Shown in pieces: positions 23,327 through 26,981 of a stretch of DNA of 64,000 nucleotides (position 1 is its first letter; each line of letters starts with the position of its first letter). The stretch spans positions 2,604,001 to 2,668,000 of the forward strand of contig JALGAS010000007.1 of assembly GCA_023078685.1 (NCBI GenBank), given 5' to 3'. The notes under the pieces were generated by a model. That model was not told the DNA's origin, ran no database searches, and saw only the letters and a list, made by a program, of their open reading frames with translations. This DNA is from Neopestalotiopsis rosae (taxonomy: Eukaryota; Ascomycota; Sordariomycetes; Amphisphaeriales; Sporocadaceae). The translations under genes and the position numbers were made by a program.

Positions 23327-24216
23327 ATGTCCCACCACTGCCACGACGAACACCAGCACTCGCACGGCGGCGACGGCCACGACCACGTGCACGACCACTC
23401 GGACGACATCACGCCGGCCCTGCAGCACAGCCTGTACCAGCACATAGACTTTGACGGCATCAACACCATGAACGAGGCCGCCGACGACTCGGGCCGCGCC
23501 ATTGTCAAGAAGACTTGGGCCGAGCGGACGCAGGTGGAGCCTGAGCTGGAGAGCGACGCTGATGAGCAGATTATCATGAGCGTGCCGTGAGTTTTTATTT
23601 TATTTTATGTTCATTCATTTGTATGCCTTGATGTTGTGGAGATTTATCCCATTCTTTTGACATTCATGTTGTTTTGTTACCGGCTTTTCATTCCCAGACA
23701 TGTCTCGCAAGCTGGAACCTGGGAATATAGCAGCCTCGTTTTATAAATTCTACCAAATTGATACTATACTAAAAGCACAAAATACACAGATTCACGGGTC
23801 AAGTAAAGCTACACTCAATCCTCCTCCGCTCATCGCCATCAGACTCGGCGCCCCGGACGCTCAAGGTCTTTGTGAACCGGCGGGACCTGGACTTTGAGAC
23901 GGCCTCGGAGCTGGCGCCGACGCAGGAGTTTGAATTGTCCCAGACCTCGGACGTGCAGGAGCTGCCGGTGCGGCGGGCCCTGTTTGGCAAGGTGCAGAGT
24001 CTAAGCCTGTTCTTTGAGGACAACTTTGGCGACGACGACGACGAAGAGGTTACGCGCTTGAGCTACCTCGGCTTCAAGGGCGAGTGGATGCAGCTGGGTC
24101 GGGCACCCATCAATATCACCTATGAGGCGGCGCCCAACCCTAGCGATCACAAAATCAAGGGTACCAATGTGAATGCCATGGGAAGTGGTATCGGTGGAAG
24201 AGGGCCGGGAGTGTAA
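23327..24216 (+). CDS. PITH-domain protein (PITHD1/TXNL1-C family)
   Basis: Two exons (23327-23586, 23790-24216) around a 203-nt intron give 228 aa. The N-terminus is His-rich (CHDEHQHSHGGDGHDH), common in fungal PITH proteins and possibly metal-binding. The PITH beta-sandwich follows from ~30 to 200: LYQHIDFDGINTMNEA, the split strand MSVP|FTGQVKLHSI, VFVNRRDLDFETASE, and LSYLGFKGEWMQLGRAPI near the end. PITH (proteasome-interacting thioredoxin-like) domains link thioredoxin-like proteins to the 26S proteasome. This protein has no thioredoxin domain, so it is the stand-alone PITHD1 type. The gene converges with CCDC25, with under 200 nt between stop codons. Confidence 0.9.
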
Positions 24217-24410: not shown

Positions 24411-25429
24411 TTACATGAAATCATCCTCCCAATCCGATCCGACCTCCTGATTGCTAGAGCCGGCAACGTTCTCTGCTGAGAAGAGATCGTCGTAGGCGTG
24501 GTCCTTCTGATACTTCATATCGGCTCGCTCCTTGGCGACTCGCTGCTCTTCCTTCTTCTACAACATTTGTTAGTACCCACCAGGCGTGTTTGTTTGATCC
24601 ACATGTTAAGACAATTCTTTTGTATCATGAAGTGGATAAAACTTGAGTAACCGCAAGAAGAACTCACCCTAGCCTGTACGGCAGCCATGTCCTTGCGCCT
24701 CCGCTGCTTGAGCATATCTTCGCGCTCCTGGGCGAAATCGGGCTGCTTCTCGACCTTTGTCTTGTTGAGGCGGTTGATGATGGCGTTCTCGCGCGTGGGC
24801 ACGAGGACGCGCTTCACCTTGCGGGGGTCCTTGAACGAGACCTGGCCCACAGCCATGGAGCCGTCCTTTTTCAGGTTGGACCAGGGCGTGTAGATGACGG
24901 TTACATTGTCCTTCTTGTTGCCCTCGATGCTGTTGGCCTTTGTGAGCTGCGCCAGGTCCGTCACCAGCGCCTCGGGGATGGACTCCCACGAGTCCTCCTC
25001 GTTGGGCATCCGCAGGTAAATGTGTGCCGACGAGAGCTTGTCGGCGTGGAACTATAAAATGAAGAAAAATTCATGGTAAGGATCCCGCCAACTAATCAAA
25101 GGTATAATTATATGATTTGAGAGAAAAGTGGCCAATAAAGGATTTGTTCTCATACCCTTGAATTAATGTTAGTCTTGCGTATCACAGTAGAAATAGAATA
25201 TGGGGGAAAAAATAAAATCAAGGGTGCTGAAAATGTTCAAATTCTTACCAAACATCTTGCTCCCAGCCATACTTGATCAAATCCTCATCTAAAAGAAAAT
25301 GTGTGTTAGTCGTGGTTCTCCTCCATAGAGGCTAGACTAGGTATTTTCTTTCGTACTCTCGAATTTGTCCTTGCCGACGTAGACAAAAGCGGAGGGGGAG
25401 ACCGCAGTCGAAGTAAAGTAGTAAACCAT
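24411..25429 (-). CDS. CCDC25: CCDC25 homologue (NFACT-R/DUF814 domain) with an apparent one-nucleotide exon
   Basis: Best model: exons 25429-25357, 25288-25249, 25156 (1 nt), 25051-24668 and 24557-24411, giving 214 aa, close to the ~208 aa of animal CCDC25. It begins MVYYFTSTAVSPSAFVYVGK, continues with NEDLIKYGWEQDVW, then FHADKLSSAHIYLRMP, TPWSNLKKDGSMAVGQ and a coiled-coil tail, and ends SDWEDDFM like its relatives. The NFACT-R domain spans ~1-120. The conserved Trp before FHADK needs TG from exon 2, a single G at 25156 and TTC from the next exon. Human CCDC25 is a membrane DNA sensor; the fungal role is unknown. It shares a divergent promoter with mitoribosomal uL3m. Confidence 0.9.
25156..25156 (-). 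other. Candidate single-nucleotide exon in the CCDC25 gene
   Basis: On the minus strand, intron A (25248-25157; starts gtaagaat, branch-like gactaaca, ends ttcaag) is followed by one G and then intron B (25155-25052; starts gtatgaga, ends tttatag). Without this G, the downstream exon shifts out of the frame that encodes the conserved domain. Reading on past the G meets TGA within three codons, and retaining intron A gives TGG TAA at once. Confidence 0.8.
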
Positions 25430-25898
25430 GTCGCCAGTTATAGACTCGGATGCACCTCAAGGCCGGTATATTCGATTTGACAGGCTTTTGCCAAGAAGTG
25501 AATCATAAAAAGTTGCTCCGCATGCAAATTAACTGCAAGACAATTAAATAACCAAAGAGTTGCATCCAATCCGCAGCCTGATAATTGGCAGCAATCGTCG
25601 AGACCCGCCAGCCGAGAGTAGTGCACGGACAGCTGCTAAAACTCACTGGAGCTTTCTGGCGGCCCGGCGCATTTTTTCGATATCGAACCTCGATGGAAAG
25701 CTTCAATTCCGACCATAGGAGAGAAAGAAAGAAGCTCGACAGCCCCAGGTTCCACGGGTCCAATTGCGACAATTACCACGACGATCAACCCAGCAATCAA
25801 AGCCATCGTTCGGAAACGGTGCCGAGTTTTCTGCCAGTCCCAACAAAGGGCATAGAATAACCAGCAACTACCAAACCTCCAGCTCCCAGCGAAGCATA
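25430..25898. promoter_or_regulatory. Divergent promoter region, CCDC25 / uL3m
   Basis: 469 nt between divergent start codons. A CCAAT box lies near 25565. No coding signal independent of the uL3m upstream frame is seen. Confidence 0.5.
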
Positions 25899-26981
25899 AT
25901 GGCGCCCAGGATGCCAGCCCGCTGGGCAGCCGCCCTCCCGACACACCTGCTGTCGCCCTGCACAACCACCACCTCCACCGGCCTCATCTCAGCAGCATCC
26001 TCGAGGATCCTCATCACCCAGAGCGGCAGCGCGCTCCTGCCCCGGACCGCCCGGCGCGGCGTCAAGTACGGCTGGTCGACGCGGCCGACGCAGGACAAGC
26101 CCACGCGGTTCAACCAGGTCTCGTCGGGCCTGCCCATGCCCACGGCGGGACCGGCGGCGGCGCTGGAGCGCAAGCGGGCCACCACACCGCTGCGCACGGG
26201 AGTGCTGGCCACGAAAAAGGGCGTCTCGGCCATGTACGTCGCCGGCCGCCGCGTGCCCTGCACCATCCTGCAGATGGACCAGTGCGAGGTCGTGGCCAAC
26301 AAGACGCGCGCCGGCAACGGCTACTGGGCGGTCCAGCTCGGCTGCGGCCTCAAGCGGCCCGGAAACGAGACGGCGCCCATGCTGGGCTACTACGAGGCCA
26401 AGGGCCTCGCGCCCAAGCGCCACCTCGCCGAGTTCAAGGTCCGCGACCGTGACGGCCTGCTGCCCGTCGGCGTGCAGCTGCAGCCCGACTGGTTCAAGCT
26501 GGGCCAATTCGTCGACGCCCGCAGCAACTCGCGGGGCATGGGCTTCGCCGGTGGTATGAAGAGGCACGGCTTCGCCGGTCAGGAGGCGTCGCACGGTAAC
26601 TCCAAGAACCACAGGACGATCGGTACGACGGGTCCCAGTCAGGGCGGCGGTTCCCGTGTGCACCCGGGCAAGAAGATGCCGGGCCGCATGGGCGGCGAGC
26701 GGGTGACGGTGCAGAACCTCAAGGTGCTAAAGGTGGACAATGAGATGGGCATCGTGGTCATCAAGGGCCATGTCGCCGGCCCCAAGGGCTGCCTCGTCAA
26801 GCTGTCAGATGCCATCAAGAAGGACGCTCCAGTGCAGACCTTTATCGACAAGGCTAGAAGGATAACACTCGACAGAAACCCGGATGTCGAACAAAAGCTG
26901 GAGGAGGCAAGAGTAAGGCATCTGGAGCTCAAGGATATGAGAAAGGAGGGCACCATTGGTGGTGCTGCGTTGATGGACTAA
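25899..26981 (+). CDS. MRPL9: Mitochondrial large-subunit ribosomal protein uL3m
   Basis: An intronless 360-aa ORF. The ATG at 25899 starts MAPRMPARWAAALPTHLL, an Arg/Ser/Ala-rich presequence of ~50 residues ending near TARRGVKYG. The uL3 core follows from ~95: GVLATKKGVSAMYV, QMDQCEVV and an extended loop containing GFAGGMKRHGF, ASHGNSKNHRTIGTTG, PSQGGGSRVHPGKKMPGRMG and RVTVQNLKVLKVD. That loop is diagnostic of bacterial and mitochondrial L3, which reaches the peptidyl-transferase centre. Yeast calls this protein Mrpl9. The open frame continues upstream of 25899, but that part is the 5'UTR or promoter. The gene is strongly GC-biased compared with its surroundings. Confidence 0.96.
   Translation: MAPRMPARWAAALPTHLLSPCTTTTSTGLISAASSRILITQSGSALLPRTARRGVKYGWSTRPTQDKPTRFNQVSSGLPMPTAGPAAALERKRATTPLRTGVLATKKGVSAMYVAGRRVPCTILQMDQCEVVANKTRAGNGYWAVQLGCGLKRPGNETAPMLGYYEAKGLAPKRHLAEFKVRDRDGLLPVGVQLQPDWFKLGQFVDARSNSRGMGFAGGMKRHGFAGQEASHGNSKNHRTIGTTGPSQGGGSRVHPGKKMPGRMGGERVTVQNLKVLKVDNEMGIVVIKGHVAGPKGCLVKLSDAIKKDAPVQTFIDKARRITLDRNPDVEQKLEEARVRHLELKDMRKEGTIGGAALMD

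What the first reader, a model, noticed from the sequence alone, without database searches (positions are those of the whole stretch)
25052..25248. One-nucleotide exon in the CCDC25 homologue
Seen: the conserved Trp codon before FHADKLSSAH must be assembled as TG (25250-25249) + G + TTC (25051-). The only solution with canonical splice sites is intron A (25248-25157, gtaag...ttcaag), a single G exon at 25156, and intron B (25155-25052, gtatg...tttatag). Using the whole 197 nt as one intron leaves the frame one base short, retaining intron A gives an immediate TAA, and keeping only intron B gives TGA. Known: single-nucleotide exons are extremely rare (one is reported in a plant APC11 gene), and fungal stwintrons (nested introns excised in order) are described. 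Inference: either a true 1-nt microexon or a stepwise, recursive-type removal in which intron A must go first, because exon definition on one base is not possible.
Basis: partly seen in the sequence, partly recalled or inferred. Interest (0 to 1): 0.88.

Follow-up and report, generated by a model that had tools for sequence, protein, structure and literature searches.

The report
Single-nucleotide exon in fungal CCDC25 gene
A fungal gene has one letter of its coding sequence standing alone between two introns, and the same one-letter exon seems to exist across a whole class of fungi, where it derails about half of the published gene models that were examined.

Summary
In this CCDC25/JLP2 (NFACT-R) gene (minus strand, 25429-24411) the conserved Trp codon is TG (25250-25249) + G (25156), followed by TTC (25051-). 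Of the GT-AG one- and two-intron solutions enumerated, 16 keep an open frame and only the one with a 1-nt exon gives the conserved protein. A protein with one residue different comes from a 970-nt contig, shorter than the 1019-nt unspliced gene, so the expected mRNA exists in a close relative.

The organism is a Neopestalotiopsis (Amphisphaeriales), not Hypocreales. The larger result is conservation. At this codon 86 of 172 Sordariomycetes gene models are broken, against 0 of 35 from Leotiomycetes, 0 of 4 from other classes and 0 of 43 transcript-like rows. Two conflicting wrong models from Fusarium decode to one DNA string, G|GTGAGGTCGCATGGTCAACT, with the lone G in place.

Single-nucleotide exons are known (APC11 and VPS55 in plants, CYP621A in Fusarium), so this is a new member, probably class-wide. 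It is not a stwintron by structure. The order of removal is open; intron A need not go first. No DNA of relatives and no raw reads were available.

The parts
24411..25429 (-). CCDC25/JLP2 homologue, ATG to TAA, 1019 nt genomic, 645-nt coding sequence, 214 aa; NFACT-R_1 domain
   Evidence: homologues; Pfam PF05670 on the near-identical P0001, E 2.8e-33
25357..25429 (-). exon 1 (73 nt)
25289..25356 (-). intron 1 (68 nt), GTACGA...TTTTAG
25249..25288 (-). exon 2 (40 nt), ends with the first two bases (TG) of the Trp codon
25157..25248 (-). intron A (92 nt): donor GTAAGA, branch site CTAAC with its A 12 nt before the last base, acceptor TTCAAG
25156..25156 (-). single-nucleotide exon G, third base of the conserved Trp codon
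   Evidence: only enumerated solution that gives VW-FHADK
25052..25155 (-). intron B (104 nt): donor GTATGA, candidate branch site CTTAC with its A 25 nt before the last base, acceptor TTTATAG
24668..25051 (-). exon 4 (384 nt), begins TTC (Phe of FHADKLSSAH)
24558..24667 (-). last intron (110 nt), GTGAGT...TACTAAC...GTTGTAG
24411..24557 (-). last exon (147 nt with TAA)

Best explanation
Position 25156 is a genuine, constitutive single-nucleotide exon. Two ordinary U2-type introns of 92 and 104 nt, each with its own donor, branch site and acceptor, lie one base apart. The spliceosome pairs splice sites across each short intron and removes the two one after the other, because the machinery at acceptor A and U1 at donor B would compete for the same few bases (inference). 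Either order gives the same mRNA, TG-G-TTC. A retained, B retained and G skipped all bring an early stop, so only complete removal makes the protein. The arrangement is old: a lone G between acceptor and donor can be read out in a second subclass of Sordariomycetes, and it is probably ancestral to most of the class. Shown: the sequence, the single canonical solution, the mature coding sequence in a near-identical relative, the site-specific breakage of gene models. Inferred: that G25156 supplies the base in vivo, sequential removal, its order, and the age.
For: Single conserved-protein solution among 16 in-frame ones; chance tests; of 77 genome sites with a CTRAC..AGGGTRNG-type motif this one ranks first for a two-intron model with coding flanks. 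P0001 (one residue different, VWFHADK) comes from one contig of 970 nt, less than the 1019 nt of the unspliced gene. The Trp codon is broken in 86 of 172 Sordariomycetes ncbi-type models, 0 of 35 Leotiomycetes, 0 of 4 other classes, 0 of 43 transcript-like rows; ncbi-type 86 of 211 against 0 of 43, Fisher p 4.8e-9. Within-gene controls: intron-1 site broken in 4 of 172; length around the last intron outside 46-50 aa in 1 of 167 scorable Sordariomycetes models. P0190 and P0192 decode to one string G|GTGAGGTCGCATGGTCAACT, against 1 of 20,000 random peptides compatible; P0103 (DGE) agrees. P0114 of Apiospora arundinis (CKFQGM) fits TTYCAG|G|GTATG (my reading).
Against: No DNA of relatives could be fetched and no reads could be mapped. 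The mRNA alone does not tell which base supplies the G. 86 of 172 Sordariomycetes models are normal at the codon, and I cannot tell whether those genes have the 1-nt exon correctly modelled or a simpler structure. Acceptor A ends AAG rather than CAG or TAG, and the branch candidate of B is CTTAC rather than CTRAC, both less usual (recalled). P0024 and P0114, both labelled A. arundinis, cannot be readings of exactly one string: by hand they agree at 8 of 9 compared bases before the G and conflict at one, as a one-base difference in an A run would give.
Confidence: 0.92

Rival explanations
1. One 196- or 197-nt intron with a non-canonical end and no 1-nt exon: GT...TA (TG|GTAAG...TTTATA|GTTC) or TA...AG (TGG|TAAG...TATAG|TTC). 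The mRNA would be the same.
For: The mRNA and protein evidence fits it equally well.
Against: Both inner introns carry full canonical signals one base apart, and the lone G between acceptor and donor recurs in the Fusarium decode and fits Apiospora, which an ordinary intron interior would not keep.
Confidence: 0.04
2. Stwintron or recursive-type removal in which intron A must be excised before the donor of B becomes functional.
For: Adjacent introns, a complete class of Sordariomycetes with a stwintron in bioDA (PMC5639578), and the expected steric conflict at one base.
Against: Donor B (G|GTATGA) is contiguous in the primary transcript and acceptor A is too; no shift of the boundaries gives a split splice element with GT-AG ends and the right frame (my check of the sequence).
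Confidence: 0.02
3. A base missing from this assembly; in truth a simple intron with a frame-matching end.
For: One-base deficits are a common assembly fault (recalled).
Against: N. clavispora (P0002, Val-Trp skipped) and many other genomes show the deficit at the same codon.
Confidence: 0.01
4. The 1-nt exon is real here but local; the broken models elsewhere in the class have unrelated causes.
For: Half of the Sordariomycetes models are normal, and relatives' DNA was not seen.
Against: The breakage is specific to this codon and to this class, occurs in species that also have a correct model, and the lone G is decoded in Fusarium.
Confidence: 0.1

Closest known systems
CYP621A single-nucleotide exon of Fusarium (PMC12940212; parts 1 and 2 of 3 read)
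   Same: A lone G in an AGGGT core between two short introns of a Pezizomycotina gene, needed for the frame inside a conserved motif, and wrongly modelled in databases
   Different: A rarely expressed P450 reported from Fusarium species only, with 18 reads as proof; here a different gene with signs across at least six orders but no reads mapped
APC11 single-nucleotide exon of Arabidopsis (PMC4674806; part 1 of 3 read) and of land plants (PMC8831610; passages)
   Same: Constitutive 1-nt exon kept over a long time in a conserved gene and missed by annotation
   Different: Plant; base A in Arabidopsis; proved by mutating the base. No such experiment exists here
VPS55 single-nucleotide exon of land plants (PMC8831610; passages)
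   Same: Conserved 1-nt exon with well-kept donor, missing from annotations
   Different: Used to make two protein forms in some plants; no sign of alternative use was looked for here
Fungal stwintrons, e.g. bioDA [D2,3] (PMC5639578; Background section and passages)
   Same: Two U2 introns at one apparent position, removed in two reactions by intron definition; the bioDA case spans Sordariomycetes
   Different: A stwintron has one splice element split by the inner intron and no exon base in between; here nothing is split and one base lies in between
Mitochondrial 1-bp exon of placozoan cox1 (PMC5436844; abstract in search listing only)
   Same: One-base exon
   Different: Mitochondrial introns, other splicing machinery

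Membership tests
Single-nucleotide exon | Mature mRNA holds exactly one base that is contiguous with neither neighbouring exon in the genome | tested here: met
   Window needs one base between TG (25249) and TTC (25051); mature sequence seen as protein P0001 of a near-identical relative, contig shorter than the unspliced gene
Single-nucleotide exon | The base is flanked by AG and GT of two complete introns | tested here: met
   TTCAAG|G|GTATGA with branch candidates CTAAC and CTTAC
Single-nucleotide exon | Leaving it out breaks the frame | tested here: met
   Skipping gives a stop after 67 residues
Single-nucleotide exon | Reads or RT-PCR join the base on both sides; changing it changes the cDNA | not testable with these tools
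   No reads available; protein-level evidence only
Single-nucleotide exon | Conserved in relatives | tested here: inconclusive
   Strong indirect evidence, but no relatives' DNA
Stwintron | A donor, branch or acceptor element of one intron is interrupted by another intron | tested here: not met
   Donor B and acceptor A are contiguous in the sequence
Stwintron | Two consecutive reactions with an obligatory order | not testable with these tools
   Needs splicing intermediates
CCDC25/JLP2 family | N-terminal NFACT-R_1 domain over the whole profile | tested here: met
   P0001 residues 1-113, profile 1-112 of 112; close homologues named CCDC25

The most novel reading that the evidence does not exclude
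A single-nucleotide exon that arose near the base of the Sordariomycetes has been kept by most orders of the class in an expressed gene. It is spliced accurately by two successive rounds that share one exon base, and standard annotation does not see it. It would be the most widely distributed single-nucleotide exon known in fungi.
Probability: 0.75. Interest if true: 0.68.

Novelty: new member of a known kind. Interest (0 to 1): 0.6.

Why it matters
If true, a one-base exon can last in an expressed fungal gene over about the depth of a class, so exon size is no barrier where introns are recognised by intron definition. It offers a series of species for asking how two spliceosome cycles share one exon base and in which order. 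It also exposes a systematic annotation fault: 86 of 172 Sordariomycetes models examined are wrong at one codon, in several different ways.

Tried and rejected
Rejected on sequence: one 197-nt GT-AG intron (frame one base short); donor GTTTGG at 25253 (drops Val-Trp; the junction seen in N. clavispora P0002 and P. fici P0005); donor GTATGG at 25272 (drops eight residues); an 18-nt exon ending at 25156 with donor 25253 (TNINSR in place of Val-Trp). Stwintron reading rejected on structure.

Led nowhere: DNA of relatives in viral contigs and genome contigs (48 and 173 pattern matches, none a relative); stwintron paper PMC9024468 searched for six terms, no occurrence; paper searches for this gene and for fungal microexons or related terms found nothing on it. 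A motif test at the last intron counted mostly substitutions and was replaced by a length test. The first count of broken models (34 of 120) used too narrow a pattern and included rows that are normal at the Trp (P0078, P0084, P0088, P0100); corrected. The first genome scan for coding flanks handled only plus-strand sites (20 evaluated) and was redone on all 77 (23 gave any two-intron model). That scan covers only a G exon and five branch/donor patterns, so other 1-nt exons in this genome are not excluded. L016 ranked second; its upstream flank scored negative and it was not followed up.

Full report
What is there. On the minus strand at 25429-24411 lies a CCDC25/JLP2 homologue (NFACT-R_1, PF05670, found on the near-identical P0001). 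With exons 25429-25357, 25288-25249, 25156, 25051-24668 and 24557-24411 it encodes 214 aa from 645 nt. One locus was found in the 53.8-Mb genome (only the best candidates are scored there). The finding's coordinates are correct to the base.

Why a 1-nt exon. Exon 2 ends GTT-TG and the next exon begins TTC, one base short of the conserved VW-FH. Enumeration of GT donors and AG acceptors gave 16 in-frame, stop-free solutions, and only TG|intron A|G|intron B|TTC restores the conserved sequence. Intron A has GTAAGA, CTAAC and TTCAAG; intron B has GTATGA, a candidate CTTAC and TTTATAG. In 20,000 dinucleotide shuffles, CTRAC-N4..24-(C/T/A)AG|G|GTRNG with room for both introns appeared 0 times, the same without the branch site 17 times, AGGGT alone 647 times (patterns set after seeing the site). 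In the genome CTAAC...AGGGTATG has 14 hits against 33 for the reversed control; over five branch/donor variants 77 against 199. Of the 77 sites, 23 allow any two-intron model by my rules and the window's ranks first for coding flanks.

The mRNA exists. The best homologue, P0001, differs at one residue and reads VWFHADK. Its source label is lgn, which I take to mean contigs assembled from public reads (recalled, not stated by the tool). Its one contig is 970 nt, shorter than the 1019 nt of the unspliced window gene. This shows the mature coding sequence in a very close relative. It does not show which base was used.

The organism. The nearest named protein is from Neopestalotiopsis clavispora (P0002, 99%); the genus belongs to Sporocadaceae, Amphisphaeriales, not Hypocreales.

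Conservation, read from wrong gene models. I collected 254 distinct homologues: the best 120 listed by each of three searches that had 4463, 3474 and 3801 hits, so this is a capped sample. I sorted them by source label into 211 ncbi-type rows and 43 transcript-like rows (labels lgn, jgi or ena only; contigs of 907 to 5290 nt, so that not every one need be a transcript), and the ncbi rows into classes by organism name (from recall, with one genus per order looked up). At the Trp codon 86 of 172 Sordariomycetes models are broken, counting P0117, which starts downstream of it; 0 of 35 Leotiomycetes, 0 of 4 other classes and 0 of 43 transcript-like rows. Ncbi-type against transcript-like gives Fisher p = 4.8e-9, though the groups differ in taxa. 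As within-gene controls, the intron-1 site is broken in 4 of 172 Sordariomycetes models, P0117 included, and the stretch around the last intron has a length outside 46-50 aa in 1 of 167 (P0006; 5 rows could not be scored).

The breakage takes recurrent forms: Val-Trp skipped (42), TG joined to a site inside the next exon (14), TG plus a wrong acceptor (10), VWY forms that fit a shifted or read-through donor A (9), and a few others. Broken models occur in Amphisphaeriales, Xylariales, Sordariales, Ophiostomatales, Glomerellales and Hypocreales. Some species have one normal and one broken record: F. avenaceum (P0069; P0197, P0231), F. venenatum (P0058; P0232), V. dahliae (P0016; P0074), B. bassiana (P0234; P0241). 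The other 86 Sordariomycetes models are normal, and I cannot tell which of those genes have the 1-nt exon.

DNA recovered from errors. P0190 (F. keratoplasticum) reads ...DGEVAWST-FHVDK and P0192 (Fusarium sp. LHS14.1) ...DVWVRSHGQL. Taken as two frames of one string, they fix the bases GGTGAGGTCGCATGGTCAACT; 1 of 20,000 random peptides was compatible with such a pairing. P0192 joins TG directly to this first G, so the gene finder placed an acceptor just before it, and GTGAGG follows one base later. P0103 (F. solani...DGE) agrees. In Apiospora arundinis three records are broken in three ways, and P0114 (CKFQGM) fits TTYCAG|G|GTATG (my reading, not tested against chance). P0024 of the same species cannot be read from exactly the same string: by hand, 8 of 9 compared bases agree and one conflicts. 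So the lone G lies in Hypocreomycetidae (decoded) and Xylariomycetidae (the window); in Sordariomycetidae only the one-base deficit is seen.

How it works. Most likely two rounds of ordinary U2 splicing by intron definition, which holds in filamentous ascomycetes (PMC5639578, Background section). Simultaneous occupation of acceptor A and donor B is sterically unlikely (inference), hence sequential removal. Either order is possible on sequence, so intron A need not go first. A retained, B retained and G skipped end after 38, 39 and 67 residues, so partial products are probably discarded by mRNA surveillance (inference).

What is known. APC11 in Arabidopsis, proved by mutating the base (PMC4674806, part 1 of 3 read); APC11 and VPS55 across land plants (PMC8831610, passages); CYP621A in Fusarium with the same AGGGT core and 18 reads (PMC12940212, parts 1 and 2 of 3 read), a paper that calls its case the second example and the first in a fungal gene. 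A longer microexon with regulatory use is reported in Trichoderma (PMC11121469, abstract in listing only). I found no report on CCDC25/JLP2 in the two searches that named the gene nor in the listings for one-nucleotide exons; the library holds open papers only. Stwintrons differ by a split splice element, absent here.

Verdict. Real, and very probably a 1-nt exon (0.92). It is a new member of a known kind, notable for apparent class-wide conservation (0.75), which needs relatives' DNA or reads to prove.

Noticed in passing
window 25719-26981 (+): Neighbouring open frame of 420 aa with a Ribosomal_L3 match (E 6.4e-11), divergent from the CCDC25 gene; probably the mitochondrial L3 protein (inference).
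   Followed up: partly
window 23773-24216 (+): Downstream open frame, end of a PITH-domain protein (E 1.7e-39), convergent with the CCDC25 gene.
   Followed up: partly
whole genome G000: Acceptor-G-donor motifs (CTRAC..AGGGTRNG type, five variants) are fewer than their reversed controls, 77 against 199.
   Followed up: no
G000:C1 1848335, 2019039 and 2360860: Three P450 places with identical score and frame length (339 aa), and a fourth, similar one at 1526989: perhaps recent copies.
   Followed up: no
protein P0117 (Neopestalotiopsis sp. 37M): The public model starts at an internal Met (MPNEEDSW) and lacks the first 52 residues, a likely further result of the broken codon.
   Followed up: partly
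proteins P0046, P0061, P0077: Colletotrichum and Sodiomyces models read VW-F-FH with one residue more; whether this is a shifted donor or a real extra residue is unclear.
   Followed up: no
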